From Phycisphaeraceae bacterium (GTDB lineage Bacteria; Planctomycetota; Phycisphaerae; Phycisphaerales; Zrk34), in NCBI GenBank assembly GCA_028282685.1, contig JANQHK010000155.1, positions 1 through 44,623 of the forward strand: a DNA stretch of 44,623 nt. The letters are read 5' to 3'. A program made the position numbers and the translations under genes. Below are positions 13,835-42,126 of the stretch, in pieces (position 1 is the stretch's first letter; each line of letters starts with the position of its first letter). The notes beneath the pieces were generated by a model. That model was not told the DNA's origin, searched no databases, and saw nothing but the letters and a program-made list of their open reading frames with translations.

Positions 13835-13874
13835 CCGACCTCGCGGCTGTGCTCAATAACCGCTGGAGATGGAT

Positions 13875-16704: not shown

Positions 16705-16719
16705 GATTATCATCACCTC

Positions 16720-16827
16720 ATGTTCGGTTCACACCTGTCTATTGCCGACGGCTTGCACCGGGCCCTTGAGCAGGCCGATACGCTGGGCATGAAGACTGTC
16801 CAGATCTTCACCAACCATCGGATGTAA
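16720..16827 (+). pseudogene. nfo: nfo 5' fragment, copy 1 (host-type stump)
   Basis: This 35-codon open frame reads MFGSHLSIADGLHRAL and ends in VQIFTNHRM then stop. It matches the N-terminus of endonuclease IV (Nfo) up to the conserved FTKNQRQW motif, where it breaks off after FT. The codon use is GC-rich like the chromosome on both sides, so I take it as the original host 5' end left behind by an insertion. A possible -10 (TATCAT) sits exactly six bases before the ATG. The rest of the host gene resumes near 29207. Confidence 0.85.
16803..16819. other. Attachment junction 1 (left end of older element)
   Basis: The host nfo sequence ends here in TTCACCAACCA, which is also found at the second junction (18088). 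After this core the sequence leaves nfo. By the recombinase context it is the left attachment site of the older insertion. The exact crossover bases are inferred (central AA likely). Confidence 0.65.
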
Positions 16828-16946
16828 TCCGACGGGATGGTATGACATTGGGGGGCTGGGGGTTTGTCTCTTGCCGTGTCCACTTTTTGACTTCCGATGG
16901 TCGCATCGCTGGCGGCCAGGTACTTACGAGCCGTCTAATAATTCGG

Positions 16947-16972
16947 GTATCCTAATTTGATTTTTAGGATAC
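16947..16972. repeat. 9-bp inverted repeat upstream of the prepilin-like gene
   Basis: GTATCCTAA and TTAGGATAC are perfect inverted arms separated by eight bases. It is AT-rich and lies about 100 bases before the prepilin-like start, so it is more likely a protein-binding site than a terminator. Confidence 0.5.
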
Positions 16973-17073
16973 ACTAATCTATGGTGTGGCATCGTCAGAG
17001 TTGTGATGCCGGGCAGCGGTCACGGTGGCTTATGCCCAACCTCTTTGTTTGAAACGAATTAGGAGCTTCACCT

Positions 17074-17856
17074 ATGTGGAATCCACAACGAAATCGGAAC
17101 CGGTCAAAGGGTCTGACACTGATCGAATTGGTGGTGGTGCTCACCATCCTTACCGCCTTGGGCGGGCTGCTTGTGCCGATTATCGGGGGCATGATCAACC
17201 GCACGCACTTTGCCAAGTGCGCGGTGACTATTCCCGATCTCACCCGGCAGATCACCCGATCCTTCACCTCGGACCTGCGTTATCCCAACACGTGGGACTC
17301 CCTGATGGACGCGGCAAGCCCGGGGTCGTTGTTCCCGAAACTCCCCGGCGGGGGCGATGCGGGTGGCGAACTGGTCGCCGGTACGATCACCGGCGATCAG
17401 GCGGACGCATTCATTGCCCTGGGGATCACCGAGGTTGTGGACCTCGACGCGACCATTGATGGTGATGCGACCTGGGACGTATCAAACACTGCCAACATCC
17501 GGGCGTTGAACCCGGTCGGCGACAACGATGTGGCGACGTTGAACACCTCCGGCATCTCGGTGGACAGTCTGAACCTCAAGCGGCACCTCAGTGATCCCAC
17601 GACAATCTACGTAGTCTTCGGGCTGGGTAACCCATGCTCGGCGGTGGGCCCCAGTGGGCTGTTCACCGAGTCACCCACCCACTTTGGCGGCGAGGATGTG
17701 ATGAACCCGCGTGATGTTTACCAGCGGTATGTCGTGATTTTCTCGGTCAATGACAACAACGATGTTCGCTTTGAGACTGCGGCTTCGGTTCACCCGGACG
17801 GACTGGATGGAGGGGAAGCTCACGTGCGAGGCTTCTACGAAGAGACAGCACCTTAA
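17074..17856 (+). CDS. Type IV prepilin-like / pseudopilin-like protein
   Basis: A 260-residue protein with a class III signal: a short basic leader ending in KG, then LTLIELVVVLTIL with Glu at mature position 5, as required by prepilin peptidase (cleavage after Gly). The mature part is large, Gly/Asp-rich and strand-rich, as in the many pseudopilin-like secreted proteins of planctomycetes. TTAGGAG lies seven bases ahead of the ATG. No other secretion or pilus gene is near, and it sits alone inside the older element between two nfo stumps, so it is probably cargo. Exact function unknown. Confidence 0.82.
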   Translation: MWNPQRNRNRSKGLTLIELVVVLTILTALGGLLVPIIGGMINRTHFAKCAVTIPDLTRQITRSFTSDLRYPNTWDSLMDAASPGSLFPKLPGGGDAGGELVAGTITGDQADAFIALGITEVVDLDATIDGDATWDVSNTANIRALNPVGDNDVATLNTSGISVDSLNLKRHLSDPTTIYVVFGLGNPCSAVGPSGLFTESPTHFGGEDVMNPRDVYQRYVVIFSVNDNNDVRFETAASVHPDGLDGGEAHVRGFYEETAP

Positions 17857-17881
17857 CAAGGGTCACAGATGAATCCTGGTG

Positions 17882-17933
17882 CTTGTACCATGCCCCCGAC
17901 GGGCTGCCGAGTCTGTCGGGGGCGGCGTACAAG
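17882..17933. repeat. Two-part stem-loop downstream of the prepilin-like gene
   Basis: CTTGTAC and GCCCCCGAC on the left pair with GTCGGGGGC and GTACAAG on the right (7 plus 9 bp, 3-base internal loops). It could end the prepilin transcript, but there is no T-run, so a terminator call is uncertain. It may instead be part of the element end. Confidence 0.55.
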
Positions 17934-18001
17934 CGCGCCGCTTGGCCGGATGCTCGTTTGTGTTGTAGCCAGTTGCGGGGTCTTCGCAATATACTTCACG
18001 C

Positions 18002-18115
18002 ATGTTTGGTTCCCACCTATCGATAGCGGGCGGTCTTCACAATGCCCTCATTAAGGCCGCAGAACTCGAGATGGATTGCGTCCAAGTATTCACCAACCAC
18101 CCGCCAAGTCGGTAG
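18002..18115 (+). pseudogene. nfo: nfo 5' fragment, copy 2 (replacement end of older element)
   Basis: A 37-codon open frame, MFGSHLSIAGGLHNALIK to CVQVFTNHPPSR then stop. Residues 1-31 are identical in protein sequence to the functional nfo at 29118, although 11 of the 31 codons differ at silent positions. It breaks off at the same FT codons as copy 1. I read it as the replacement N-terminus carried by the older element, later severed by the second insertion. TATACT lies six bases before the ATG. The recombinase pseudogene on the other strand has its stop codon inside the attachment core. Confidence 0.85.
18084..18102. other. Attachment junction 2 (left end of younger element)
   Basis: TTCACCAACCA at 18088-18098 repeats the core of junction 1. 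Left of it is nfo copy 2; right of it begins the 3' end of the serine recombinase gene, whose TGA is read from bases 18090-18092 on the minus strand. Confidence 0.65.
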
Positions 18116-20116
18116 TCGCAAACTCCCACTCCGTTAAGTCATGTCGCAACGTGTACTTGTTGCGTCCGGTGCGATTGGTCCGCTTCGGCGTCCCCGGCTT
18201 CGCGGGCACCCACTCGCGGTCCCAATACAACTCAACTCGTTTGAACAATCGTCGAAACGCCTCTCCGCGTTCGCGGTATTCAAGCGTCGGTAGTTCTGCC
18301 AACAACCGCTCGCGCTCGGCTTGTTGTTTTTTATCCCGATGGAACAGCGCCTCGATGCGTTCACCAAGAGGTACGGTGCGGGGTCGCCAGTTCTCCAGTT
18401 CCACCTCGGCTTCGTCAGCCTTACGCTTCAACACTGCCCGCTGCTGATCGCCCGTCGCCTCCACCCACGCGAGTGTGAACCGCTCGACGGCCTCGGTGGC
18501 CTCCCCAATTCGCCGCTCGGCCTCGGCTACCATGTTGGCCTCCACCATGGTGATCGCATCTTGAAATTCGGTGAGGTCGAACGGCAGTCGATTGAACCGC
18601 GTCTCACCCGGCGGGTCGTCGTAGAAGTGATCCAACGCCAGTCGCCGTACACGCTGAATTTCCGGGTAATTGATACCGTACTCCTTCACCAAGTAGCCCG
18701 CCAGAGCGTTGATACCCTACGGTGGCGTGGGCTTGAAACTCGCGGGAGAAGTCCTCGTCGTTACTCAGCCGGGCCAGCCGTTCTTCGATGTTCTCACGGG
18801 CCGCCGCACTCATCACCCGGTCAAACTCGACGTTCTGCTCGGCGAGCTTATCGAGCAACATTTGCTCTGCTTCATCATGCTTGATGGTATGGAAGCCGCA
18901 CTCAACCTTCTGCCCATTGCTTTGTGCGTTGCGGTATGTGTTGCACACGTATACCACTGATCCGTTATCCATCCGACCGGCCATGTGCTTGCCGCAATGG
19001 CCACAGTAAAGGATGTTTTTCAAATAATAGCGGGGATTGCGTGGGGCAAAGTTCGGTTGCTCACGCTCTGCCGCCAGTTTCTCCTTGGCGCGTTTCCACA
19101 TCTGCTTATCAATGAGCGGTTCGTGCGTTCCCTCCATGATGACCCGCTCGTCCTTACCCCGCCATCGCTTCTGCGCTTCTGTCGGTCCGTTGCGCCATCC
19201 CTTCACATCAACCATCTGCCCGCCGGTGTCGAACGTGCAGAAATCAGCTACCTGTGTTTTCCCAAAGTGTGTGTCGCCTGCGTAGGCGGGATTCTCAAGA
19301 ATGGTGGTAACGAGTGCGTGCGTGAACGGCTTGTCGTAGTAGGTGAGCCCCTCTTCGTTAAGCCGTTTGGAAATTCCCCGGCGGGATAACGATAACTCCG
19401 TGTATAGCTCGAAGACCCGCTGGACGGATCGAACGTGTTCTTCGTTATCGCTTTTCACCAGTTTGATCGTGTCGCTGTGGTCCTTACGCGGGATCTTTTC
19501 CGGCGTTACTTCGCGTGGTGTGTCGCGTAGAGTTCCATCTTCGTTTGAGTCGTAGGTCCATCCCCGCGTGCGGCTCACTGGTTGCCATACCCAACGCAAT
19601 GCACCTCCCGACCCGTAGCATGCCTTGCCGTAGCCAAAGGGGTGCGGACCGGTGGCCTGAACCGGTTGCCTTAAAGTTGCTTATCCGTGTCCGTATTGAT
19701 TGGTACGCGGATTGGCGTAGCTTCTCATCGTTGTTGTGCGCCCCGACCACCGCCAGCACATCCTCAGCTATGCCGTGCCGGGTCAGGTCGCTGTTGTCAC
19801 GCAGCGCGATGAGGCGTGTGCCGTGGGAACGTAGCGTTGCGATGATGGAGAAATATTCGAAGGTGTCGGTCTGACCAAACCGGTCTTGCGACTCCACATA
19901 TGCCGTGCTTATCTCATCGGTTTCGACCTGCTGTATGAATTTCTGGAACTCGTCCGAGGCCGAGACCTTGCTACGGCTAACGGTGTAGACATGCCAGTAT
20001 GGCTGCGGCACCTTGATGCCACGAACGGCCAGCATGTTCTTAACGTTATCGATCTGTCCTTGATGGTCTTGCTCGTCTGTCGATACACGGATGAGTACTG
20101 CTTCGTGTTTGGCCAT
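18090..20116 (-). pseudogene. Large serine recombinase, broken by two frameshifts
   Basis: Three open segments in different frames together make a large serine recombinase. 20116 to about 19655 has the resolvase domain with catalytic-Ser context LIRVSTDEQ. About 19655 to 18715 has the recombinase domain and a zinc ribbon (YCGHCGKHM and a later YVCNTYR). About 18715 to 18090 has the charged coiled coil and C-terminal tail ending in LAGGW. Frame changes occur near 19655 (after NFKATGS, continuing PHPFGYGK) and near 18715 (after HATVG, continuing INALAGY). The 3' end touches the attachment core, as expected for the integrase of this element. It may be truly decayed, or one or both shifts may be sequence errors. 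Confidence 0.8.
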
Positions 20117-20294
20117 AATGCTTAGACCTTACCCTGACCGTAGTATGAAAATTGAAGCAGTGCGGCCACCCGGTCAAGGTACAATGGCTCGGCTTGGGGC
20201 ATGATTCTTGTTTGCTTACGTTGTAGGCCTTTTCCCCGAGACTTGCTGGAGTTTCCTACTTCAGTATCTCGCTTGATTTCGGTACTGGATTTGA

Positions 20295-20885
20295 TCATCC
20301 AGCGTTTCTCAAATAGCGGTTGACGGTTGTGCGTGATACACCAAGGGCCGTGGCAATCTCGTCTTGCGTTAAACCCTTGTCGCGTAGTTTTATTGCACGG
20401 TCGGGTTTGGCCTTGGTGGTGCCGGGCTTGCGGCCTTGGTACACACCACGTTCTTTCGCGGCTTCAATGCCCACACGCTGCCTTTCTTTTATTGCTTCTA
20501 ATTCCATCTCCGCCACTGCAAACAACACGCCTGCAATCAGACGTCCTGTTGCGCCCGATAGATCGAGTTGCTGTGTGATGGATACAACACGCACTCTAAC
20601 ATCGCACCAGTTGGCGAGTAGGTTGATACCGTCGCGTTGCGTTCGCGATAACCGGTCCAGTCGCCACGTTACAACTGTTACGTGACGACCGGCAAAGATG
20701 GCTGCCTGTAATTGCTCCAATGCGGGGCGGGCGGTTGTCGTAGCCGTGTGTTTGTCCACGTACCACGTCGCGGCGTTGGGATCATGGCCGTGGTTGTTAA
20801 GCCATTCAGTAATGGCGGCGCGTTGGCCCGCTTCGTTTTGTCCGGTGGTGCTCACGCGGATGTAAACAGCAATCGTTTTCTGCAT
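20295..20885 (-). CDS. Small serine recombinase (resolvase/invertase family)
   Basis: A 196-residue resolvase/invertase. The N-terminal catalytic domain begins IAVYIRVSTTGQ (catalytic Ser in RVS) and includes TWRLDRLSRTQRDGINLL. A long E-helix region (AEMELEAIKERQRVGIEAAKERG) leads to a C-terminal helix-turn-helix (GLTQDEIATALGVSRTTVNRYL). ATG 20885 is chosen because ATGGAG precedes it by six bases; in-frame starts further upstream lack such a site. It probably resolves cointegrates or inverts DNA in the element; unlike the neighbouring large recombinase it is intact. Confidence 0.9.
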   Translation of the reverse strand: MQKTIAVYIRVSTTGQNEAGQRAAITEWLNNHGHDPNAATWYVDKHTATTTARPALEQLQAAIFAGRHVTVVTWRLDRLSRTQRDGINLLANWCDVRVRVVSITQQLDLSGATGRLIAGVLFAVAEMELEAIKERQRVGIEAAKERGVYQGRKPGTTKAKPDRAIKLRDKGLTQDEIATALGVSRTTVNRYLRNAG

Positions 20886-20975
20886 GTTTGTCTCCATTGT
20901 TGGTGTGTGCCGGTAAGGGTACACCTCTAATGGTGCTTGATGTAAGTCCAGAATGGCCCGATTTATCGCGAACTT

Positions 20976-21350
20976 TTAGCAGGGCGTCGGCGGGTAGGAG
21001 ATGTAGTTGCCCGTGGTGCCCGTCTGGTGGCAGTACTCCTTCCAGGCACCTTTGATCTCAATCCAGAACGATTCATTGTCATTGGTGACGACTAAATCGC
21101 ACTTTGTGCGTGGTTTGTCGGGGTAGCCCATTTCGGCGGCGGCCTGGATGCCATCGGTGTTTAGGAGTTCGGCTAAGCGTTTGCTCCAATTCGGTTCGGT
21201 CTGCGGTCGTTGCAGGTCGGACCGGACGTGGCCGCCGTACCAGTTCAAGCCGGTGGGTGTGCCTTTGGCCGTCGTGGTGTTGGCCTCCCGGTCCATCGCG
21301 TGCAGGTGTTCTATGATTCGCTGCACAATGGTTTCGGGAACGATGCCCAT
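20976..21350 (-). CDS. Possible PD-(D/E)xK nuclease-like protein, short
   Basis: A 124-residue protein. The segment CDLVVTNDNESFWIEIKGAWKEY places an Asp, then E-x-K about a dozen residues later, which is the arrangement of PD-(D/E)xK endonuclease folds. The earlier part (NWSKRLAELLNTDGIQAAAEMGYPD) would be the preceding helix. The protein ends soon after the motif, so it may be a C-terminally truncated restriction-type or repair nuclease. Neighbours are recombinases, and no methyltransferase is seen. Family membership is inferred from the motif alone. Confidence 0.5.
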   Translation of the reverse strand: MGIVPETIVQRIIEHLHAMDREANTTTAKGTPTGLNWYGGHVRSDLQRPQTEPNWSKRLAELLNTDGIQAAAEMGYPDKPRTKCDLVVTNDNESFWIEIKGAWKEYCHQTGTTGNYISYPPTPC

Positions 21351-21488
21351 TGGACTACACCTCTTCGTTGATCCGTTGGTAGCGGCGTGCTACATCTGTC
21401 AGTGTTACGGTCGCAACGGTTAGCGTACAATAAGTATGTCCGTTGGGCACCGTGCTTGGTGGACGACAATTTAGTCAGGCTTTGCGGA

Positions 21489-21602
21489 CCCCGACAAATC
21501 GCCAATTTCTTTGAGCGTCCGCAAGTGTCATCCCCATGGTTTTATCTGTGGGGTGTGACGCTTGTGCTGCGTCGCTCAAAGGCTCTGGCGAGCCCGTCGG
21601 GG
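21489..21602 (+). ncRNA. Candidate structured RNA: long interrupted hairpin
   Basis: Four paired segments nest in order. CCCCGAC (21489) pairs with GTCGGGG (21596). CGCCA (21500) pairs with TGGCG (21586). CTTTGAGCG (21509) pairs with CGCTCAAAG (21573). A 15-base stem from 21522 pairs with 21549-21564, with two G-U pairs and one bulge, closing a 12-base loop. Such nested complementarity over 114 bases is unlikely by chance. It lies about 85 bases before the start of the membrane-TPR reading frame, so it could be its 5' leader or an independent RNA. It matches no RNA family I recognise. The rest of the 337-base gap (21351-21687) shows nothing else. Confidence 0.45.
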
Positions 21603-21687
21603 ACAAGGTGCAAGCGTCCCCCCGCCTTTTCATACGTACATGCATCTTCGGCGAAGCTGACGTTCAATCACTTTGCTGGAGATGATA

Positions 21688-22383
21688 ATGGACAACTCAA
21701 ACCCACCCGCTCAAAACAATCAACCTCGCCGTAAGCGTTCTGGCTGCCTCATTGCCGGGGGCGTCATGGTGGTCTTGTTCCTCGTTTTGCTCGCCATTGG
21801 CTTCTATACCGAGTAGCAGACCAAGGCGGAACTCGAACGTGCCGATGGCCTGTGGGCCGCTGGGCAGACCGAGGAAGCGGCGGCCATCTACACCCGCGAG
21901 CTTGAGTGGATGGAGGATGACCAGTTGCCGAAGACCTACGAGCGGATCATCGCATACCACTACGACAGTGGCGACGCGACAACGGCGGCGGAATGGTGCG
22001 AACGAGCCGTAGAGGGTGGGGTTGAGATTTGGTTTGGCCGGGATGATCTTGGAGATGTGCTTGCGGCCGCCGAACTGGCGGTTGAGGCCCGTAGAGCCGA
22101 GGTGGAGGCGGCTAAGCGGGCGGAGGAGCAGCGACTTGCCGAGGAGCGTGAACGCAACAAGCCGAACCGTGCCGAGATGGACCAGTTCTACGAGTCCGTC
22201 TGGACCGTCGATCGTCATCATGTGATTGCCGAGCTTGATTCCAACAGCCTTCGGACGCTGACGATTACGGTGAACGGGCAATGGGATGCCTTGCCCCACG
22301 CGACCCGTTTGGAATACGCCCGGACCTTCCGAGGTGCGTGGCGGGGTGTGTGGCCCTGTCGCCCGTCTGTCGCGTTTGGGTAA
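21688..22383 (+). pseudogene. Membrane-anchored TPR-like protein interrupted by in-frame TAG
   Basis: From ATG 21688 (CTGGAG upstream) the frame encodes a basic/Asn-rich start, a membrane helix (GGVMVVLFLVLLAIGFY) and then TAG at 21814, after which the same frame stays open for 189 codons. The second part has TPR-like sequence (ERADGLWAAGQTEEAAAIY), a charged coiled coil (VEARRAEVEAAKRAEEQRLAEE) and a C-terminal domain with NGQWDALPHATRLEYAR. Anchor, TPR and C-terminal domain clearly belong together, so this is one gene with a nonsense codon; read-through is possible but unproven. The C-terminus may also be cut short. Function unknown. Confidence 0.65.
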
Positions 22384-22464
22384 TGCCCTTGGTAGGATTG
22401 GGCCATCGTGTTACTGGTGGCCGTGTCCGCAATGCTGCGGCATTGCCTATGAAGGGGTATATCA

Positions 22465-22674
22465 ATGGACAGTCACCTTGCCGGGGAGTTCAAACGCATC
22501 AAGAAGATCCGCCGCACTGCCATGCGTGCTCGTGTTGCCCGTGAGGCCCTTGGTGCTTCGGTGGTATGTGTGTTTGGGAAGGGAACAACAAAAAGTTCTA
22601 AACAACATAAAACAAGGGCAAAACCAGGACATTCGTGGGGAGAGTATAAAGTCAAAGCCACCGGTCAATTTTGA
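22465..22674 (+). CDS. Small hypothetical basic protein
   Basis: A 69-residue open frame starting MDSHLAGEFKRIKKIRRTAMRA, very rich in Lys and Arg, with a weak purine-rich stretch (GAAGGGG) about 14 bases ahead of the start. I recognise no family. It lies in the 350-base gap between the interrupted TPR gene and the convergent thymidylate-synthase-like gene, where I see no other feature. Confidence 0.25.
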   Translation: MDSHLAGEFKRIKKIRRTAMRARVAREALGASVVCVFGKGTTKSSKQHKTRAKPGHSWGEYKVKATGQF

Positions 22675-22733
22675 ACCGACGACCGGCGGTTTACAAAAAG
22701 TAAAAAACTATTCGACTTCCTGCGATCATTATC

Positions 22734-23744
22734 TCAACCGGAGGGCCTCGCCAAATGCTTGAGCCATCGCCCCCACATGCTTTGAAGCGCCTTATCCTCG
22801 CAATTTTCTGCGGCCATCGCCATCTCATCTTTCCAGCCCCGACGCCGAGCATCTTCCGCTGCCAGAATCCAATACATGTTCGCAAGTGGTCCAAGACTAG
22901 ACACTCTGCGCCTCACCGGCTCGCACGGCCTCGAATCTCTGGGTTGAGCAATTAATTCGCGAGCAAGGCGATCCAACCCCTGCCATGCTGTATTTGAGTT
23001 TCGCATTGGCATACGGATATCAATTCCCTGCGGCAGCTTCGGCATTGTCTTGGTGCAAGTAAACTCTTTTAGTGCCTTTTCATACGCGTGAAGACTGCTT
23101 ATGGCATGCATATACGGACCGACTTCAGCGCCAATCCAACCCGCCATAATTTCCTGAAGGTAAGTGAACTGAACAAAGTTGTACGGCATACCACGGAACA
23201 CATCATTGCTGCGGCAGGTTTGGAGCCAGTGAAGGCGGCCATCCACAAGCCGTAGGCATGCTTGGGTGTTGCAAGGGACATCGCCTGTGCGAGGCTTCCC
23301 TGACATACGGGGCATATCTTTATTGGCGTTCCATATCGATAGGACCACTTGGCGTGTTTCGCCATTTGCTTTTAAGACTCTAGCTGCCTGTTTCAGTTGG
23401 TCATAGCCATAGCCGTACCGGAGCCTTGCCCCATACGCCCCAGGCGCGTGCTTTCCTCCACCGACATAATCCCCGTATTTTGAAAACCAATGCACCAAGA
23501 ACTTGACATCGTCTTTTCCAGCCATGATCTGCACGACCTCGGCTATAGCAAACGCGATGTTCATCGCAGGCGTGCGTGATGCCACCCATCTTGCACGGGG
23601 ATTACCAATCTGCACCGCTGCATGCATGAGTTCAACGGTTTTCCCATCACGCGACCCGATTTCATGGGTACCTTGACGATGAACAATGGCCCGAGCCGCC
23701 TGCCTCCACACCACATCCGCTGATTCCCCGGAAAACGTTTTCAT
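22734..23744 (-). CDS. Thymidylate synthase homologue (ThyA family)
   Basis: A 336-residue ThyA-fold enzyme. All main thymidylate synthase residues can be placed: nucleophile Cys158 in DVPCNT, phosphate-binding Arg178 and Asp181 in CRSNDVFRGMPYN, base-selecting Asn189, and His219/Tyr221 in LHAY. Asn rather than Asp at 189 argues for a dUMP (not dCMP) substrate. The product could be dTMP or, as in phage homologues, 5-hydroxymethyl-dUMP; sequence alone does not decide. It is longer than E. coli ThyA (264) with an extra C-terminal region. It is the last gene of the seven-gene operon, and its start overlaps the preceding stop by four bases. It is diverged from housekeeping ThyA and is cargo of the element. 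Confidence 0.85.
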   Translation of the reverse strand: MKTFSGESADVVWRQAARAIVHRQGTHEIGSRDGKTVELMHAAVQIGNPRARWVASRTPAMNIAFAIAEVVQIMAGKDDVKFLVHWFSKYGDYVGGGKHAPGAYGARLRYGYGYDQLKQAARVLKANGETRQVVLSIWNANKDMPRMSGKPRTGDVPCNTQACLRLVDGRLHWLQTCRSNDVFRGMPYNFVQFTYLQEIMAGWIGAEVGPYMHAISSLHAYEKALKEFTCTKTMPKLPQGIDIRMPMRNSNTAWQGLDRLARELIAQPRDSRPCEPVRRRVSSLGPLANMYWILAAEDARRRGWKDEMAMAAENCEDKALQSMWGRWLKHLARPSG

Positions 23745-24814
23745 GGAGAGGCACTCCTTTTCTGGATTTGTTCACGTACCATATCGTTTATGCCCCATTT
23801 AGGGGGAAACCATAGGTCTACGGGAGTTGATTTTGCTTTGAATACCTGCTTGATTCTAGTCCTTTTCGTTAAGCCTTTAACGTCGGGATGCATTACTCTG
23901 GCATACTTATCAACTTCGCAAAACAAATTTTGACAATCAATGAGTTGTAGACGCCGATCACCCAAACACTCGAATTGTAGACGACGTTTTTCAAACTCAT
24001 GTTCCTGTCGATCCGCCATTAGTTTAATCAAGTCCACGTCGCTGAGACCGCCCCGATCCTTGAAGCATTTCGCAATTCCATCACGAGCACCTGGCCCTGG
24101 CACAACGAACGACATTTCATCGTCGTCAAATATCGGCGAATAGTTGATATCGATCGTGAACTGAAAAGCCAGAAAAGGACCGAGCGTCGGATAAGAACGA
24201 AGGATTTCATACACTGCACTCAGTGTGGCGGCCCTACCTATACGCTTAGCAAGGCTATTTTTCATCATGTACTCAATCAAAGCAAGATGATTGCGGTGCT
24301 TTTCTTGGAAACCAAACGATGCACCACCGGAAGGCATAATGTATGCGGCTGAATATATCCGCTTCTTTGCCGCTCTAGCACCCGAAAGAACTCGGGAATA
24401 CTTACTTCGAGAGTAATTCTTCCAAGTCAATTCGCCCAAATGATTTTCAAGCAACTCCCACGTTTCAATCTTATTAAAAAGCTTGAACAGCATGATACGG
24501 AAGACAACTTCCTCGGGCGTTGACCTGCCCTTATATATCACATTTGCAATCAAGTACTGGCTTACGCGATCAGCCGCTCTATAGGCATTTGTGAATCGAT
24601 GCCTACGAAGTACCGGGTCGTCTGTCCACGGTGGTGGACAGCCTCTGACTCGCCGAAACATCGCAGCTTGACGCTCTGCTGCAAAATTCCAGTAACTATC
24701 AAAGACGGGCGTAGTTTTGACTGGATCGAGCCGAGCAAACACATACGGCGCGCGTACCGCAGATGTGACTAGTTGGTTCTTGGTTTGGGCTGGTCGCTGC
24801 ACAGACATACTCAA
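23741..24814 (-). CDS. Protein resembling the 5-hmdU DNA kinase helical family
   Basis: A 357-residue protein. PPWTDDP (61-67), then RFTNAYRAADRVSQY (73-87), then EEVVFRIMLFKLFNKIETWE (101-120) resemble the conserved N-terminal motifs of the helical family found in phage 5-hydroxymethyl-deoxyuridine DNA kinases and alpha-glutamyl/putrescinyl-thymine pyrophosphorylases. Those enzymes act in thymine hypermodification and are related in fold to helix-hairpin-helix DNA glycosylases. A central segment (SYPTLGPFLAFQFTIDINYS) and an acidic DDDEMSF fit that fold. Neighbours are a thymidylate synthase and a nucleotide kinase, which suits base modification. The family call is by memory of motifs; the reaction is inferred. 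Confidence 0.6.
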   Translation of the reverse strand: MSMSVQRPAQTKNQLVTSAVRAPYVFARLDPVKTTPVFDSYWNFAAERQAAMFRRVRGCPPPWTDDPVLRRHRFTNAYRAADRVSQYLIANVIYKGRSTPEEVVFRIMLFKLFNKIETWELLENHLGELTWKNYSRSKYSRVLSGARAAKKRIYSAAYIMPSGGASFGFQEKHRNHLALIEYMMKNSLAKRIGRAATLSAVYEILRSYPTLGPFLAFQFTIDINYSPIFDDDEMSFVVPGPGARDGIAKCFKDRGGLSDVDLIKLMADRQEHEFEKRRLQFECLGDRRLQLIDCQNLFCEVDKYARVMHPDVKGLTKRTRIKQVFKAKSTPVDLWFPPKWGINDMVREQIQKRSASP

Positions 24815-24823
24815 TGAAGAAGG

Positions 24824-25429
24824 TCAACGGATATTGTCCAACTTGGCGACAATTTGTTCGGCATAGGAACTTCTGTCGTCTTGGCGCTCAATTGAATAAA
24901 CCGGAAACTCTGTTTCGAGTGACTCAAGGAAGCGACAGTATGCTAGACGGAGTTGTAAGCCATTGCCACCGGCTTTTTGCAGTCGTTCCTTCGGGCCGAA
25001 AAGGACAAACGCTGCGGATGGGATAGCAAATCCCCAATGGTGACGAGCCAGAAGTTCAAGCAATTCCAATGTGCGTTCATCAACGCCTGCCTCCCTGCCA
25101 TAGATAATGGTGGACCACCAGAAGCGATCCATAATGATGGTATCTCCGCGTTCAAAAGCTGGCCGAATTTTTGTCTGGATGGCATCGATATGAGCCGCTG
25201 CGTGCAGGACCTGTAGACAGGCAGGAGTAACTGACTGAACGCCAAACGTTTCAGGCTTATGATGGAGGTCATAAATGAGTCGCCCGACAGTACCAGATTC
25301 ATTTCCTGGAAAGGCGAACAGATGAACAGTCTTGCCTGATGCCCGCAAGTTTTCTGCAAGCACCTCTGCTGTTGTGCTTTTGCCTCCTCCGTCTGGCCCT
25401 TCCAAAACAATTAGCCGACCAAGTGTCAT
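24824..25429 (-). CDS. Thymidylate-kinase-like P-loop kinase
   Basis: A 201-residue P-loop kinase of the dTMP kinase family. Walker A is GPDGGGKST (11-19), and the DR-x-x-x-S motif of dTMP kinases appears as DRFWWST (101-107). A Lys/Arg-rich lid near FGPKERLQKA is present. Length fits Tmk (about 205-215). In the operon it would phosphorylate dTMP or a modified dUMP made by the ThyA homologue. Its start overlaps the preceding stop (ATGA), and nine bases separate it from the next gene. It is probably not the housekeeping tmk, being on the mobile element. Confidence 0.85.
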   Translation of the reverse strand: MTLGRLIVLEGPDGGGKSTTAEVLAENLRASGKTVHLFAFPGNESGTVGRLIYDLHHKPETFGVQSVTPACLQVLHAAAHIDAIQTKIRPAFERGDTIIMDRFWWSTIIYGREAGVDERTLELLELLARHHWGFAIPSAAFVLFGPKERLQKAGGNGLQLRLAYCRFLESLETEFPVYSIERQDDRSSYAEQIVAKLDNIR

Positions 25430-26274
25430 TCAGTACCACCTTCGGTTTCCGCTGGCATCTCGCCAATGATTTCAGAAAGCGTCTCAGTAAGCTTCTTCGT
25501 TGCAGTTTTAGTAACGCTGCCTCGCTCCGGCAATGCGACAAAGATATTCACATGATGCAACGGCAAGGCCATCTCGTGCGCCATGAATGTCCCAAGTTGA
25601 CAGAGCCCTAGGTAGTTGCCATATCCCCGATCAAAGATGTATTCCGTGGGATAATACGCCGAAACAGACAGTCCTTGGTCAGTATGCCCAAAACTCACCT
25701 GTTGCAAACAAGGAAACCCTGACAGTGCAGCTCCTGTATGGTCTTTGGCAGGGTCGTAAATACTCACCTGAAGCGCGCTACGGCGTGTTTTACCTTGATC
25801 GCGATTCCACCAGCGGAGAATTTCCCTGAGTTGATTCACACGCTTGCCTTCGGGGGCACTAGAGCTCACTCCGGTGGCATCAATCATCCTGAGAAAATAT
25901 GTGCCTCTGCTGTTCAGCCGTGACAGCTTCTTGAGCCTAGGGTAAACACGTTTAACATAGTGCTCGAATAACTCGTCAGCAGGACGTGGCGCACGGGGCG
26001 ACCAACACATGTGAGGAAAGATCGTGCTTGCTGTTGCAGATACCGTCTGATGCTTGTGTTCACCCAAGCTGTGGTTGATGCTGCAGATCGTCTCATCCAA
26101 AGCCGTGCGAATGGCTGGAACCTCTATGGGTTCATGTAAATCGTCAAATTCTGAGATCGAAAGAACGATCGGCTCCTTCAACTCCCCTTTGACTGCACCG
26201 TAAACACGTAAAAAAGCAATTGCCCACGCTACGGACAGATTCCCACTTGATATGACAACATTATCAGCATTCAT
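25426..26274 (-). CDS. Divergent thymidylate-synthase-like protein, altered active site
   Basis: A 282-residue protein with no close family I know. Its C-terminal half can be aligned by eye with thymidylate synthase. FPCLQQVSF gives a Cys (189) where the nucleophile sits, and AYYPTEYIFDRGYGNYLGL matches the following strand-helix with the Asn (220) kept but the phosphate-binding Arg replaced by Pro209 and the Asp by Tyr212. LGTFMAHEMAL continues the match. The N-terminal half holds MCWSPRAPRPADELFEHYVKR. I infer a ThyA-fold paralogue that no longer binds a nucleotide phosphate in the usual way; it may act on another substrate, on DNA, or be a sensor or partner of ThyA. It overlaps both neighbours (11 and 4 bases). 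Confidence 0.5.
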   Translation of the reverse strand: MNADNVVISSGNLSVAWAIAFLRVYGAVKGELKEPIVLSISEFDDLHEPIEVPAIRTALDETICSINHSLGEHKHQTVSATASTIFPHMCWSPRAPRPADELFEHYVKRVYPRLKKLSRLNSRGTYFLRMIDATGVSSSAPEGKRVNQLREILRWWNRDQGKTRRSALQVSIYDPAKDHTGAALSGFPCLQQVSFGHTDQGLSVSAYYPTEYIFDRGYGNYLGLCQLGTFMAHEMALPLHHVNIFVALPERGSVTKTATKKLTETLSEIIGEMPAETEGGTE

Positions 26275-27133
26275 CGGGATCCTCTAAGTGTCGGTGAATA
26301 GCAGCCCCATCGTGGCATTTCGGCATAACACGCAGAAACGTGGCCCAATCATCAAGCGGGCATTCGGCTCGCGCAAGGCCACGCCGTATTGCCCTTACTG
26401 TCATGTAGCTTTCCGATTCTTCAACGACTTCAACCGCAGCACCCTCAACCAGTGCCCCTGTCGGCAAGAAAGCAAGATCACCAACGACAAGGTCAACAGG
26501 CCGGTCGGTCCAATGTTCATCGACGACCACAACATTCTCGCAAATTGGCTGACCCACAAGCGAGGCACGGATCGTCTTTGGCTGGACCGAAAGCAAACGA
26601 TCACATACTTCAAGGCTAAGCGAACGGATCGTCCAGCGAAGGTGGTTGATGAGCGTCTGATAGCCCACTCCAAGATGACCAGCAGCCACAAAGACCTGCT
26701 CCGCCGTCGGAGTGTTCAGCGACCAGCCACGTGCGGTAAATATACGAGTGACGGCAGCCTGAGGCATCAGCAGATAAGCCCCAAAAAGACTGGCTTGCAA
26801 TTCCTCCGGTTCGCCCTTTCGTCCTCGCTCGACACCCTCAATGTATTCATCTACTCTAGTACCATGGCCAAATGCATGGTGCCCAATTTCATGGGCACAG
26901 GTAGAGTTCTGGTAACCAACAGGGCGATCTGAACCAATCAAGACGACGGGATTCTCTCCCCCTGCATACATACCCGCCAGACTGGACAGCGGCTTGAACC
27001 AGACTTCAATACCTAGTTGCGCAGCAACATCAAGCACACAGATTGCATGATCCATTGGAATACCGAGACGTTTGCGGACCTGCATTGCGTGTCTGAGCAC
27101 GGTGCGTGCCTCACCAATGGCCAACTGCATCAC
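26264..27133 (-). CDS. ImmA/IrrE-family metallopeptidase
   Basis: A 289-residue protein with the COG2856 zinc-peptidase domain: HEIGHHAFGHG (81-91) holds the HExxH motif, and EELQASLFGAYLLMP (110-124) supplies the third ligand Glu and the family's typical following helix. ImmA/IrrE enzymes cleave partner XRE-type repressors in response to DNA damage or other signals. The XRE gene is immediately upstream with a four-base overlap, so this is a classic regulator pair. The C-terminal 100 residues look strand-rich (VVVVDEHWTDRPVDLVVGD) and may sense a ligand. In this operon it likely controls induction of the thymidylate-type genes. Confidence 0.9.
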   Translation of the reverse strand: MMQLAIGEARTVLRHAMQVRKRLGIPMDHAICVLDVAAQLGIEVWFKPLSSLAGMYAGGENPVVLIGSDRPVGYQNSTCAHEIGHHAFGHGTRVDEYIEGVERGRKGEPEELQASLFGAYLLMPQAAVTRIFTARGWSLNTPTAEQVFVAAGHLGVGYQTLINHLRWTIRSLSLEVCDRLLSVQPKTIRASLVGQPICENVVVVDEHWTDRPVDLVVGDLAFLPTGALVEGAAVEVVEESESYMTVRAIRRGLARAECPLDDWATFLRVMPKCHDGAAIHRHLEDPDEC

Positions 27134-27477
27134 GCTCCCCCTTCTGTCTTGAGAGCGTTTAACAGCCTGATCACACGTTGAAGGTCATCTGGCTTGAGTC
27201 GCTGCAACTCACGCGCCGCGAGTTCCAATTGTGGATCAACGGGATCGTCTTCTGGATCAGTGATCATGGTTAGCCACGTCACCGAAACGCGATAATGACT
27301 TGCTAAGGTCGAAAGTTCTTCGGCAGACACCCTGCGCTGTCCGGCTTCGATTTGGCTCACTGTTGGCCTGTGCCAACCCATTAACTTAGCGACTTGGCCT
27401 TGGCTAAGACCTGCTTGTTCCCTTGCGACGCGAAGCCGTTTCGCTATGCTCTCACGTTGTTCACTCATTTCTGTCAT
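27130..27477 (-). CDS. XRE-family HTH transcriptional regulator
   Basis: A 115-residue Cro/CI-type regulator. The helix-turn-helix spans about residues 10-65 (RLRVAREQAGLSQGQVAKLM, then GWHRPTVSQIEAGQRRV, then LASHYRVSVTWL). The C-terminal part is short and helical. It is followed by its probable protease (ImmA/IrrE type) and preceded by the ACP-like gene and the operon promoter, where a perfect 23-bp palindrome overlaps the -10. It is the likely repressor of the whole operon including itself. Confidence 0.92.
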   Translation of the reverse strand: MTEMSEQRESIAKRLRVAREQAGLSQGQVAKLMGWHRPTVSQIEAGQRRVSAEELSTLASHYRVSVTWLTMITDPEDDPVDPQLELAARELQRLKPDDLQRVIRLLNALKTEGGA

Positions 27478-27480
27478 GGA

Positions 27481-27768
27481 TCACTTCGCCTTCTCTGCCG
27501 GGGCGTGCCCCTTCGATCTCACCCAAGCCTTGAGTTCACCGACCGTGCGCATTCGCTTCTTGTTTTCGTGGACCAGCGGATTGCAATCGTGTGGCACATC
27601 AATACCAAGGCGAGCCTCAAGATCGCATGCCAGTTCCACACCGTCTTCGCTGCACAGCCCGGCAGACATGAGATTTAAGCCATCTGTTAATTGCGGCGTA
27701 TTTCCGCCTCTAGCAAGTAGTTCACGGACAATTCGTTCAGCCGTTTTGTCGAATGTAGCCTTGGGCAT
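27481..27768 (-). CDS. Small acyl-carrier-protein-like protein
   Basis: A 95-residue protein, first gene of the operon, with AAGGAG seven bases ahead of the ATG. The section CSEDGVELACDLEARLGIDVP followed by RMRTVGELKAWV has the helix pattern of acyl carrier proteins (compare the DSLxxVELxxxLExxFxxxIP consensus). A Ser is at the attachment position, but the flanking Asp and Leu are not kept, so phosphopantetheine loading is uncertain. It could be an ACP-fold partner or regulator instead. Only three bases separate it from the XRE gene. Confidence 0.6.
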   Translation of the reverse strand: MPKATFDKTAERIVRELLARGGNTPQLTDGLNLMSAGLCSEDGVELACDLEARLGIDVPHDCNPLVHENKKRMRTVGELKAWVRSKGHAPAEKAK

Positions 27769-27784
27769 AATCAGGCTCCTTACT

Positions 27785-27824
27785 ATAGGTAAGGATATCT
27801 TACCTATTGATCATGCTGTGTCAA
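27785..27824 (-). promoter_or_regulatory. Operon promoter with palindromic operator
   Basis: Read on the minus strand, TTGACA (27819-27824) is followed after 16 bases by TAAGAT (27797-27802). The perfect palindrome ATAGGTAAG-GATAT-CTTACCTAT (27785-27807) covers the -10. This is the expected position for repression by the operon's own XRE protein. Confidence 0.75.
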
Positions 27825-27907
27825 GTCGAAACTCCTCGTAGTGACCCACTGTTTTGGGTTACGTACTGCTCATATGGGGATTAAACTACCATTGAAAAAG
27901 CTTAAGC

Positions 27908-27937
27908 CCTTGCCAGATAAATATTTAGCTGGCAAGG
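27908..27937. repeat. 30-bp near-perfect palindrome with AT core
   Basis: CCTTGCCAG and CTGGCAAGG are perfect 9-bp arms around TAAATATTTA, itself palindromic; only one symmetric pair (A/G) fails to match. It lies 84 bases beyond the operon -35, in the 478-base gap between the operon and the distal recombinase. It could be a replication, resolution or protein-binding site; no T-run suggests a terminator. Confidence 0.6.
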
Positions 27938-27995
27938 CGTCAAGGGGAACGTAGAAAACGGGATTCGATTCTTCGACACAGAGATCATTAAGCAA

Positions 27996-28173
27996 TTAAA
28001 GCTGCCGCCATACATATTGCATCTCACTTGGCCCGGTCGTCAATTGTCTGTAGAACCCGTCAGTCGCCCCGTGATTCGGGTGGTCCATGATTCGTTTTGC
28101 CAAGGCGCGGGGCGGAATCCAACAGGTGGGTGCCAGTCGTGTGGCGCAGAGTGTGGATACACCGGTGCCTGAC
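27996..28173 (-). pseudogene. Remnant of a tyrosine recombinase C-terminus
   Basis: On the minus strand HTLRHTTGTHLLDS matches the HxLRHxxATHLL active-site box of tyrosine recombinases. A second frame continues AKRIMDHPNHGATDGFYRQL, which fits the GH-x-x-x-x-TT-x-x-Y region. A frameshift separates the two pieces and the rest of the gene is absent, so this is a decayed fragment of another integrase. Confidence 0.5.
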
Positions 28174-28246
28174 TCTTACTACTATTAACGGTTTTCGGTA
28201 CGTCGCGTTGAGCTGCTGCGTGTGTTTTGCCCTACGTTTCATGGTG

Positions 28247-28951
28247 TCACTCGCATTTGTCGGTCCCGCCGTCACACAAAAAACGCCGCACCCATCGGCG
28301 CACGTTTCTTTCGTGGGTGCCAACTGTTCGGGCGATAGCTCGGTAGCTCATTCCTTCGTCATATAGTTGTCGCACTTGGGGCAGCAATCGTTCACGCCGC
28401 CGCTTCTTGTAGCATGGCTTGTTTGGCCGCCCACCGGTGTTTCCTTTTCGACGCTGCCCTCGTTTCGATTGGTGGGCTCGTTCTTCTTTCCAAGTAGCAT
28501 CAGGATCAAGGAGGGTCACTAACATCACGTCGCCACACACCCAACGCAGATCCCGTAATGCGATCATCCCGGCAACCAGATGGGGGCGGTGTTGGGAATG
28601 GTAACGCGGGTGTCGGGCGTATCGGCTCGTGCTTTCGGCGAGCAACACTGCACCGGCTCGTGCCGCTCGGTTGGCGGCGTCGTAAAGACCCGCATCAGCA
28701 TTGCCATTGCTTGCTCTACCAACCCAAAGCACAACGTCTACTACAGTGCCACCTCGGGCCTCAACGGCTGTATGAAGGTCGGTTTCTTGATCGGCATTGT
28801 TGCCTCTGGATTTCTGTTGGCACTTGGATACTCGGCACCAAATCACGACCTTGGTTCCCGGCTGTATGGTTTCAATGTCGTGGATGTAGGTGCTGGGAAG
28901 GTTGGATTTGTGTTGGCGTCTTGGCCGACGTATTCCGCGTTTTCGTTGCAT
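28247..28951 (-). CDS. Resolvase-like serine recombinase with C-terminal HTH
   Basis: A 234-residue protein. The N-terminal half resembles a resolvase catalytic domain (VIWCRVSKCQQ with the Ser in RVS; LLAESTSRYARHP like the conserved SRLxR region). The second half has a basic linker (RRKGNTGGRPNKPCYKKRRR) and a clear helix-turn-helix (GMSYRAIARTVGTHERNVRRWVRRF). AGAAGGG precedes the ATG. It lies at the right end of the element, 166 bases from the restored nfo. The catalytic domain is divergent, so activity is uncertain. Confidence 0.75.
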   Translation of the reverse strand: MQRKRGIRRPRRQHKSNLPSTYIHDIETIQPGTKVVIWCRVSKCQQKSRGNNADQETDLHTAVEARGGTVVDVVLWVGRASNGNADAGLYDAANRAARAGAVLLAESTSRYARHPRYHSQHRPHLVAGMIALRDLRWVCGDVMLVTLLDPDATWKEERAHQSKRGQRRKGNTGGRPNKPCYKKRRRERLLPQVRQLYDEGMSYRAIARTVGTHERNVRRWVRRFLCDGGTDKCE

Positions 28952-29105
28952 GGTTCGGTCCCTTCTGTCAGGCCGCCCACCGCACCGGCTGGCCGGGACC
29001 GTTTGACCTAGCCGGTGCGGTGGTGCTGCGGCGGTAGCTATCCGCCAAGCCCATAGTAGTTAGTATCGTTGTCGTGTTTACTTTCCTCTGCTGGTTTATT
29101 TCCGC

Positions 29106-29117
29106 TATGCTTTGGCG
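29106..29117 (+). promoter_or_regulatory. Probable -10 for a leaderless nfo transcript
   Basis: TATGCT lies exactly six bases before the nfo ATG. The same spacing occurs at the two nfo stumps (TATCAT and TATACT) and at the GbsR-type gene (TATATT), so transcription may start at the A of the start codon. A -35 is not obvious here. Confidence 0.4.
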
Positions 29118-29972
29118 ATGTTTGGTTCTCATTTATCAATTGCGGGCGGTCTTCATAATGCTCTGATTAAGGCCGCAGAACTTGAGATGGATTGCGTTCA
29201 AGTATTCACGAAAAACCAGCGCCAATGGAAAACCAAACCCCTGACCGAGGAACAGATCACGCTCTGGAAGCAGCATCTGAAACGCGCCGGCCTGAAAAAA
29301 CCGGTCAGCCACGATTCCTACCTGATTAACCTGGCCAATCCGGATGCGGCGGCACACGATAAGTCCATGCGCCTGATGCGCGATGAACTGGAACGCTGCG
29401 AGGCGCTGGGTATTGAATCCCTCGTTGCGCATCCCGGGGCGCATCTCGGCGAAGGCGAAGCCGCGGGCCTGAAGCGCATCGCCCGTTCCCTGGATCGTCT
29501 GCACGGGGAATTGCCGGGCTACCGGGTGCGCACCTGCCTGGAAATCACCGCCGGCCAGGGCACCAACCTTGGTTACACCCTCGAGCACCTGCGCGACATC
29601 ATCGATGCGACCGGGCAACCGGACCGCCTGGCCGTCTGCATCGATACCGCCCATGCCCTCGAGGCCGGCTACCCGCTCGATAGCGAAGCCGGCGCGCGAA
29701 AATTTCTGGAGCAGATCGGCCGAACCGTCGGACTGCGCACCGTTCGGGTGTTGCACCTGAACGACTCCAGGACGCCGCGCGGCTCGCGCGTCGACCGGCA
29801 CGCGCACATCGGCCGGGGACACTTGGCGCTGGATGCGTTCAAGGTGATCGTCAATCACCGTGGCTTCGCCAGGGTGCCGAAGATACTCGAAACGCCCAAA
29901 GAAGATGCCCCGGACGGCACGCCCATGGATACGGTCAACCTGAACAAACTGAAGTCTTTGATCGATTCATAA
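29118..29972 (+). CDS. nfo: Endonuclease IV (AP endonuclease), restored by the element
   Basis: A 284-residue zinc-dependent apurinic/apyrimidinic endonuclease of base excision repair. Family marks are FTKNQRQW (31-38), VAHPGAH, CLEITAGQGTNLG, CIDTAHALEAGY, LHLNDS, DRHAHIGRGH and ILETPKE, which supply the metal ligands His, Glu and Asp. Length fits Nfo (about 280). The ATG at 29118 is the start; the upstream in-frame TTG is unlikely. Codons 1-31 come from the mobile element (AT-rich, nearly identical to copy 2) and the rest is GC-rich host sequence, so the gene is a natural chimera joined within FT-KNQRQW. This is the only complete nfo copy in the window. Confidence 0.95.
   Translation: MFGSHLSIAGGLHNALIKAAELEMDCVQVFTKNQRQWKTKPLTEEQITLWKQHLKRAGLKKPVSHDSYLINLANPDAAAHDKSMRLMRDELERCEALGIESLVAHPGAHLGEGEAAGLKRIARSLDRLHGELPGYRVRTCLEITAGQGTNLGYTLEHLRDIIDATGQPDRLAVCIDTAHALEAGYPLDSEAGARKFLEQIGRTVGLRTVRVLHLNDSRTPRGSRVDRHAHIGRGHLALDAFKVIVNHRGFARVPKILETPKEDAPDGTPMDTVNLNKLKSLIDS
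29197..29216. other. Attachment junction 3 (right end of younger element)
   Basis: Element-derived nfo 5' sequence ends in TTCACGAA and host nfo 3' sequence begins with AAACCAGCG. The shared part with junctions 1 and 2 is TTCAC(C/G)AA. The likely crossover dinucleotide is AA. Confidence 0.55.
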
Positions 29973-30002
29973 AGCTGTTTCAGCATGAAAGGAATGGATT
30001 CT

Positions 30003-30689
30003 ATGCCTTCGCGACGTTCGGCATGGCTGGCGTTGATCCTGCTCACCCCCGCACCGACAATCGGCGCCGCGGCGGCGCTGTGGTGGTGGCCGGGAACCAC
30101 GCTGGGCATGTCTGTCTATACGGCGTGCAAGCTCTGGCTGCTCGCGCTGCCGGTGCTGTGGCGCCTGGGTATCGACCGCGCGCGCCCGCATCTGTCGCGC
30201 CCGTCGCGCGCCGCCCTGAACGCCGGGTGGATCTGGGGCCTGATCATCGCCGTCGCCATCGGATCGGCTTACCTGATCGCGGCGCGCATGGATTGGATTG
30301 ACGCCGAAGCGTTCCGCAGCGCCGCGGCGAAGAACCGACTCGACCGTCCCCTGTTTTTTGTACTTGGCGGGGTCTACTTCTGCACCATCAATGCGCTGCT
30401 GGAAGAATACGTCTGGCGCTGGTTCGTCGTGGGCCGGTTACAGAAAATAGCACCGAACGCCATCGCGGTGGCTCTGGGGGCGCTGCTGTTCACCGTGCAT
30501 CACGTCATCGCCCTGCGCGCCCAGTTCGATTGGTCAATCACGCTGACGGCTTCGTTGGGTGTGTTTGCGGGGGGCGTGATCTGGTCGGCCCTGTATGCGA
30601 AATACCGCTCGGTCTGGCCGTGCTTCGTGTCGCACGCTATCGCTGATGTGGCCGTGATGGCCGCGGGCTACCACCTGCTTTTTTCTTAG
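30003..30689 (+). CDS. CPBP-family intramembrane metalloprotease
   Basis: A 228-residue membrane protein of the CAAX protease/bacteriocin-processing (Abi) family. The first motif is EEYVWRW (134-140, EExxxR); the second has HH in LLFTVHHVIAL (166-167); and the last conserved His is in SHAIAD. There are about six hydrophobic segments. ATG 30003 is preferred to ATG 29985 because AAAGGA lies nine bases ahead of it. The gene follows nfo by 30 bases in the same direction, so it was probably co-transcribed with the original nfo. Substrate unknown. Confidence 0.87.
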   Translation: MPSRRSAWLALILLTPAPTIGAAAALWWWPGTTLGMSVYTACKLWLLALPVLWRLGIDRARPHLSRPSRAALNAGWIWGLIIAVAIGSAYLIAARMDWIDAEAFRSAAAKNRLDRPLFFVLGGVYFCTINALLEEYVWRWFVVGRLQKIAPNAIAVALGALLFTVHHVIALRAQFDWSITLTASLGVFAGGVIWSALYAKYRSVWPCFVSHAIADVAVMAAGYHLLFS

Positions 30690-40848: not shown

Positions 40849-40957
40849 TTCCTCTCATCCTTCGCATGATTCCGGCGCCCCATTCGCCTCGGTGGCAATG
40901 CCCCACAACCGCCGCGTGATGGGATGAAAATCAGCGGGCCGTTTGCGGTCGTCATCT

Positions 40958-42124: not shown

Positions 42125-42126
42125 GA

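What the first reader, a model, noticed from the sequence alone, without database searches (positions are those of the whole stretch)
16720..29216. Two successive insertions in nfo, each supplying a new 5' end
Seen: three nfo 5' ends (16720, 18002, 29118) all break at the same codons of FTKNQRQW, with a shared core TTCAC(C/G)AA. Only the last continues into the host gene. The first has host-like GC-rich codons; the second and third are AT-richer. Known: large serine recombinases can target conserved genes, and some mobile elements restore the disrupted gene. Inference: an ancestral element inserted in nfo and carried a replacement start; a second element then used the restored site. The target codons are among the most conserved in Nfo, so the site would be present in many bacteria.
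Basis: partly seen in the sequence, partly recalled or inferred. Interest (0 to 1): 0.9.

Follow-up and report, generated by a model that had tools for sequence, protein, structure and literature searches.

The report
Serine-recombinase islands that re-cap nfo
Two mobile DNA elements sit one behind the other inside a bacterial DNA-repair gene (nfo), and each brings its own copy of the gene's beginning, so the gene stays readable; related elements do the same in two distant planctomycetes, which makes this a small new family of an otherwise known kind of gene-repairing island.

Summary
Three nfo 5' ends (16720, 18002, 29118) break at the same codons, and only the third continues into the host gene. 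In same-family genomes the flanks (TPR gene, nfo, CAAX protease) enclose one uninterrupted nfo, so the window holds two tandem insertions: 1,282 bp (element 1) and 11,116 bp (element 2).

Element 2 carries a large serine recombinase (LSR) with two frameshifts; its stop codon lies in the attachment core. An intact LSR relative (about 46% identical) flanks an nfo-inserted element in a complete genome of another family (G251). A third (51% to G251's) sits at an nfo remnant in G650, and a congener, G749, has the empty site. Junctions of the three systems share only the dinucleotide AC of TTC-AC, as expected for an LSR crossover.

The element-borne 5' ends differ from each other only synonymously before the core (10 of 10 changes), so they work as Nfo N-termini. 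Mechanism: site-specific integration that swaps, rather than destroys, the nfo start and re-creates the target, allowing a second insertion.

Gene-restoring islands and tandem accretion are known. New here are the target, the use of an LSR to replace a 5' coding end, and in G251/G650 an attP arm translated as an in-frame linker in Nfo.

The parts
13869..16649 (+). host TPR-repeat protein, left flank of the empty site
   Evidence: ORF; homologue directly upstream of uninterrupted nfo in G001, G003, G004
16708..16713 (+). TATCAT, -10-like box 6 nt before the host nfo ATG (leaderless promoter-like)
   Evidence: sequence
16720..16827 (+). nfo copy 1: host 5' remnant, cut at FT^K and ending in TAA
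16807..16811 (+). core TTCAC of attL of element 1; inferred crossover AC at 16810-16811
   Evidence: junction comparison
16810..18091 (.). element 1 (1,282 bp), no recombinase gene left; remnant flanked by att sites
   Evidence: spacing 1282 between nfo copies; ORF list
17074..17856 (+). element 1 cargo: pseudopilin-like protein with N-methylation motif
   Evidence: PF07963 E 6e-6; distant homologues in own genome and relatives
17881..17934 (.). strong hairpin (25-nt arms) after the pseudopilin gene
   Evidence: folding z -6.3
17990..17995 (+). TATACT, -10-like box 6 nt before ATG of nfo copy 2
18002..18115 (+). nfo copy 2: 5' end brought by element 1, now cut off by element 2
18089..18093 (+). 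core TTCAC at the junction element 1/element 2; crossover AC at 18092-18093
18092..29207 (.). element 2 (11,116 bp)
   Evidence: spacing 11116 between nfo copies
18090..20116 (-). large serine recombinase in three frames (two frameshifts, near 19655 and 18700); its stop codon lies in the att core
   Evidence: PF00239, PF07508, PF13408; about 38-47% identity to G251 and G650 LSRs over three segments
20295..20924 (-). small serine resolvase/invertase, also present in the G251 element
   Evidence: PF00239; 42% to G251
22734..23744 (-). cargo: thymidylate-synthase homologue
   Evidence: PF00303, phrog_5131
23741..24814 (-). cargo: 5-hmdU DNA kinase helical-domain family protein
   Evidence: PF18723 E 3e-111
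24824..25429 (-). cargo: thymidylate-kinase homologue
   Evidence: PF02223, TIGR00041 below its cut-off
25426..26274 (-). cargo: second, diverged thymidylate-synthase-like protein
   Evidence: TIGR03283 E 7e-6, well below its cut-off, weak
26264..27477 (-). ImmA/IrrE-type peptidase (M78) and Xre-type regulator pair
   Evidence: PF06114, HTH_3
28247..28951 (-). right-end serine-recombinase-like protein with HTH, shared with the G251 element
   Evidence: tblastn 29%, E 2e-9
29106..29111 (+). TATGCT, -10-like box 6 nt before ATG of nfo copy 3
29118..29207 (+). nfo copy 3: 5' end brought by element 2, in frame with the host gene
29205..29209 (+). core TTCAC of attR of element 2; crossover AC at 29208-29209
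29208..29972 (+). host nfo 3' part, giving with copy 3 an intact endonuclease IV
   Evidence: TIGR00587 269 bits; matches E. coli EndoIV structures
29985..30689 (+). host CAAX-type protease, right flank of the empty site
   Evidence: PF02517; downstream of nfo in G001, G004, G008

Best explanation
A family of integrative elements uses a large serine recombinase to insert into nfo at the codons FT^KN. Each element carries an nfo start region, with a promoter-like box and about 30 codons, at the end of its attP. Recombination at the 2-bp core AC (TTC-AC) swaps the host's 5' end for the element's. The gene therefore stays readable in frame from the element's own start, and the old 5' end is left as a remnant at the far side. 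In the window this happened twice. A first element, now reduced to a 1.28-kb remnant with one pseudopilin gene and no recombinase, put nfo copy 2 in front of the host gene. That made a complete nfo again, and hence a new target. A second, 11.1-kb element then used it and put copy 3 in place. Shown by sequence: the insertions, the empty sites, the LSR, the swapped ends, the intact restored gene, and the same arrangement in G251 and partly in G650. Inferred: the order of insertion, the exact dinucleotide, expression from the element's box, and mobility (in this genome the LSR is frameshifted, so element 2 is probably fixed).
For: Three nfo 5' ends. Uninterrupted nfo between the same neighbours in same-family genomes. 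Joining host 5' and 3' parts at AC gives an uninterrupted 285-codon frame, stop codon counted. LSR domains. An LSR homologue directly beside an nfo 5' remnant in G251, with the second, continuing nfo 13.4 kb away. The same at G650 C223, with the attR-type nfo on C202 and the empty site in congener G749. Attachment overlaps are TTCAC (window), ACCAAGAAC (G251) and ACCAAGA (G650); the only common part is AC. 10 of 10 differences between copies 2 and 3 before the crossover are synonymous; with 22.6% of possible changes synonymous, chance is about 3e-7. TANNNT box 6 nt before all three ATGs.
Against: The window's LSR has two frameshifts, so present activity is doubtful, and sequencing errors cannot be excluded. 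Element 1 has no recombinase and no proven mobile gene; its status as an element rests on its two ends. No circular junction or excision has been seen. For G650 the two ends lie on different contigs, and its flanks were not found in G749.
Confidence: 0.9

Rival explanations
1. Reverse order: element 2 entered nfo first and element 1 later entered its left junction (attL).
For: The final map is the same for both orders. Both elements share the core and P' arm start TTCACCAACCA.
Against: attL of element 2 has a non-nfo right half, so it is a poor target, while the restored attR is a full nfo sequence. Element 1 is the more decayed. Copies 2 and 3 show purifying selection, which fits copy 2 having once been the working start in this gene.
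Confidence: 0.2
2. The middle 5' end is a decayed duplication inside one element (one insertion event, with an internal att copy), or both elements moved in together as one composite.
For: Element 1 has no recombinase, and its cargo is a single gene with distant host-type homologues.
Against: Copies 2 and 3 differ by about 14% in DNA with only synonymous changes before the core, so they diverged as separate functional starts. Each carries its own box and upstream sequence. Co-transfer as a composite is not excluded.
Confidence: 0.15
3. Homologous recombination or transposon insertion with gene conversion, with no site-specific recombinase involved.
For: The LSR of the window is broken.
Against: All three independent systems break in the same codon. 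Two have an intact LSR abutting the core with its stop codon inside it. No terminal inverted repeats at the element ends are listed.
Confidence: 0.03

Closest known systems
dusA-associated integrases and islands (PMC4482086)
   Same: The island enters the 5' end of a housekeeping gene, replaces that 5' end with its own sequence and supplies a new promoter; the original 5' end remains as a remnant.
   Different: They use a tyrosine-recombinase-type integrase with its 5' end next to dusA. Here a large serine recombinase abuts the core with its 3' end, and the target is nfo.
SXT/R391 ICEs at the 5' end of prfC (PMC2791158)
   Same: Site-specific entry at the 5' end of a conserved gene.
   Different: Tyrosine integrase and a conjugative element. 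No relaxase or conjugation gene was seen among the ORFs tested here.
Streptococcal rumA ICEs with a single serine integrase (PMC4701971)
   Same: A serine integrase whose gene 3' end overlaps the attachment site inside a conserved gene; integration can change the integrase C-terminus (predicted also for G251 and G650).
   Different: In rumA the 3' parts are exchanged and the frame changes. Here the 5' part is exchanged, the frame is kept and the protein is restored.
CIME/ICE tandem accretion (PMC5704250)
   Same: A decayed element that keeps both att sites next to a later insertion at the restored site.
   Different: Described there for conjugative and mobilizable elements. No transfer genes are seen here.

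Membership tests
Large serine recombinases | Resolvase N-terminal domain, Recombinase domain and zinc ribbon in one long protein | tested here: met
   PF00239, PF07508 and PF13408 over two of the three window frames; single intact ORFs of about 730 aa in G251 and G650
Large serine recombinases | Nucleophilic serine present | tested here: met
   RVSTDEQ in the window, RKSSDKQ in G251, RKSTQSQ in G650
Large serine recombinases | Intact reading frame | tested here: not met
   Two frameshifts in the window copy; met in G251 and G650
Large serine recombinases | 2-bp crossover core | tested here: inconclusive
   The intersection of the three junction overlaps is exactly AC, but no biochemical test
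5'-replacing genomic islands (dusA type) | Island supplies start codon, coding 5' end and promoter; old 5' end left as remnant | tested here: met
   Sequence; promoter only as a -10-like box
5'-replacing genomic islands (dusA type) | dusA-type tyrosine integrase | tested here: not met
   The integrase is a serine recombinase
CIME (element 1) | Both att sites kept, integrase and transfer genes lost | tested here: inconclusive
   att-like ends and no recombinase; descent from a conjugative element not shown
ICE/IME (element 2) | Relaxase or conjugation genes | tested here: not met
   None among the tested ORFs
Prophage or phage satellite | Phage structural or packaging genes | tested here: inconclusive
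   None found among the tested ORFs of the window element; a terminase large subunit in the G251 element

The most novel reading that the evidence does not exclude
The integration state is read out in two proteins at once. In the G251 and G650 elements the attP arm is translated as a linker of about 24 residues inside Nfo, just before its DNA-binding loop, and insertion also trims the recombinase C-terminus by 26 or 18 residues. The element may thereby tune the host's AP endonuclease while it carries (in the window) genes that look like DNA-base hypermodification, and switch the recombinase between a circular and an integrated form.
Probability: 0.1. Interest if true: 0.75.

Novelty: new variant of a known kind. 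Interest (0 to 1): 0.5.

Why it matters
In the papers read, serine-recombinase elements in protein genes mostly disrupt their target. Here a whole LSR family has solved the problem by carrying the start of a conserved repair gene. Because the restored gene is again a target, it explains how islands can stack at one site. It also gives natural LSR/attB pairs aimed at highly conserved nfo codons, with intact enzymes (G251, G650) ready for testing, and natural chimeras of endonuclease IV made by a mobile element.

Tried and rejected
LSR relatives were sought in 150 order-level relatives, in an even class sample, in genome contigs by peptide patterns, in viral contigs and in plasmids: one hit covered at least 80% of the 331-aa window segment but at only 27% identity, the rest were weaker and partial, and G251's protein gave no match at E 1e-30. 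Phage records gave only distant partial matches. No close relatives turned up in any of these. A junction pattern scan of all genome contigs and viral contigs gave 13 loci, none with nfo, so these are chance hits. Some Pirellulaceae-like (family f102) nfo genes with longer loops (G646, G575, G660, G684, G626) looked like element scars at first. They lack the second QW repeat and carry no detected LSR beside nfo, so most are probably natural loop variation. G723 and G610 do have the double repeat and may be old chimeras, but no element was found beside them. Element 1's left end was tested as an LSR C-terminal remnant: only the final GW-stop forced by the core agrees, so this is not claimed. 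No Rfam family matches in the region.
Full report
Observation. A protein search of the window's own genome with its endonuclease IV gene finds three 5' ends on this contig: 16720-16821, 18002-18103 and the full gene at 29112-29969. They form a three-copy direct repeat of 103 nt with spacings of 1,282 and 11,116 bp. All three break in the same codons; the sequence common to all junctions up to the first difference is TTCAC. Only the third continues, giving an intact 284-residue Nfo (start ATG 29118) that scores 269 bits against TIGR00587 and aligns along most of its length with E. coli endonuclease IV (1qtw, E 3e-61). By that alignment the junction lies in the FTKNQRQW loop; from general knowledge this loop holds Arg37, which enters the DNA. 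The crossover leaves the loop itself host-encoded.

It is an insertion. In the same-family genomes G001, G003 and G004 a homologue of the window's TPR gene (13869-16649) lies directly upstream of an uninterrupted nfo, and in G001, G004 and G008 the CAAX protease lies downstream (nfo intact). Joining the host's own 5' remnant (copy 1) to the host's 3' part at AC gives an open frame of 285 codons including the stop. The DNA from 16810 to 29207 is therefore extra.

What the inserted DNA is. Element 2 (18092-29207) has at its left end, on the minus strand, a large serine recombinase: Resolvase, Recombinase and zinc-ribbon domains, broken by two frameshifts relative to intact relatives. Its stop codon TGA is the complement of TCA at 18090-18092, inside the core. 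Further right come a small serine resolvase, a set of nucleotide/DNA-modification genes (two thymidylate-synthase-like proteins, one of them only weakly, a 5-hmdU DNA kinase helical-domain protein, a thymidylate-kinase homologue), an M78 peptidase/Xre regulator pair, and a second serine-recombinase-like protein at the right end. Element 1 (16810-18091) has one pseudopilin-like gene, whose distant homologues exist in the own genome and in relatives, and a strong hairpin. It has no recombinase.

The same system elsewhere. A scan of 392 Planctomycetota-level relatives found one LSR at 46% identity, in G251, a complete genome of another family. That LSR is intact (about 730 aa) and lies directly beside an nfo 5' remnant. 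The continuing nfo begins 13.4 kb further on. The LSR stop is again in the core. The element also shares the small resolvase (42%) and the right-end recombinase-like protein (29%, E 2e-9), and in addition carries a terminase. A class-level scan found a third case in G650 (51% to G251's LSR): C223 has the LSR against an nfo remnant, and C202 has a full nfo. Congener G749 has an uninterrupted nfo. Its 5' end matches the C223 remnant (86% over 35 residues), and its DNA aligns with C202 only from the core onward. The flanks of G650 and G749 could not be matched, so G650 is strong but not complete evidence.

Where the crossover lies. The sequence shared by left and right junction is TTCAC in the window, ACCAAGAAC in G251 and ACCAAGA in G650. 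In register, the three overlap in AC only. Serine integrases are known to exchange at a 2-bp core (PMC5704250, PMC10083194), so AC is the expected crossover. This is inference from three junction pairs.

Why this is restoration and not debris. Copies 2 and 3, brought by different elements, encode the same 31 residues. All ten nucleotide differences before the crossover are synonymous, although only 22.6% of possible single changes would be, which gives about 3e-7 by chance under equal rates. They must have been translated as Nfo N-termini since the two elements parted. All three starts carry a TANNNT box exactly 6 nt before the ATG (TATCAT, TATACT, TATGCT), which suggests a leaderless transcript whose promoter travels with the element. 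This was not tested. In G251 and G650 the element-borne part continues past FT.SPSQW and runs through a linker, which includes the attP arm, before joining host TKNNNQW in frame. G723 has closely similar linker DNA, but its contig ends 500 bp upstream.

Order of events. In the window, attR of element 1 would have been a complete nfo across the core, hence a fresh attB; attL has a foreign right half. Insertion of element 2 into attR of element 1 is therefore the likelier order, and it agrees with element 1 being the more decayed. The other order gives the same map and remains possible.

A further consequence. If the circular forms of G251 and G650 are read across attP, the LSR runs on for 26 and 18 residues, because the stop codon in the core is supplied by the host's nfo on integration. 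In the window the stop is present in both forms. Integration would thus change the recombinase C-terminus, as described for rumA elements (PMC4701971). Whether this matters for activity is untested.

Known and new. Replacement of a target gene's end by the island is a common rule for integrases (PMC10111431). 5' replacement with a new promoter is documented for the integrases at dusA (PMC4482086), and tandem accretion with a decayed partner for CIMEs (PMC5704250). Serine-recombinase IMEs are described as disrupting dispensable genes (PMC5704250), and the rumA family exchanges 3' ends out of frame (PMC4701971). I found no report of nfo as a target or of an LSR family that restores a 5' coding end, in a library limited to open-licence papers. 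I call it a new variant of a known kind.

Extent. Besides the window, LSRs of this group at nfo were found in two genomes in overlapping scans of 151, 392, 397, 327, 160 and 102 genomes of the phylum. There were none in viral contigs and no close relative in plasmids. The family is real but rare.

Noticed in passing
window 22734-26274: Element 2 carries what looks like a thymidine-hypermodification cassette (two thymidylate-synthase-like proteins, an HMUDK helical-domain protein, a dTMP-kinase homologue) with an M78 peptidase/Xre pair; such genes are typical of phages, and the HMUDK protein's best phage match is 34% (Brevibacterium phage LuckyBarnes).
   Followed up: partly
L090 (G251:C1:295000-310000): G251 holds a second element with the same backbone (resolvase region 96% DNA identity, terminase about 50% protein) but a different LSR fused behind the same leader, which looks like exchange of the integration module and hence of the target.
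   Followed up: partly
L093 (G723) and L092 (G610), nfo 5' region: nfo genes with a doubled QW motif (SPSQW..TKNNNQW / AKNKNQW) but no recombinase seen beside them; possible old chimeras left by lost elements.
   Followed up: partly
window 17881-17934 and 21559-21615: A strong 25-nt-arm hairpin in element 1 (z -6.3) has a related copy in element 2 (75% over 57 nt, inverted).
   Followed up: no
window 18090-20116 and LSRs of L064, L086: These LSRs have DR[WF]G[TSQ] where the usual motif is DRxxR; the second arginine is missing in this group and in some distant relatives.
   Followed up: no
window 40701-40867 / 42112-42269: Inverted repeat pair of about 160 bp, 86% identical.
   Followed up: no
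window 8943-9513 / 10289-10826: Diverged direct duplication (67-81% DNA) in neighbouring genes.
   Followed up: no
L121 11973-15779 (G610, upstream of nfo): A large (1268 aa) protein that reads like a restriction-modification methyltransferase stands just upstream of the chimeric nfo.
   Followed up: no
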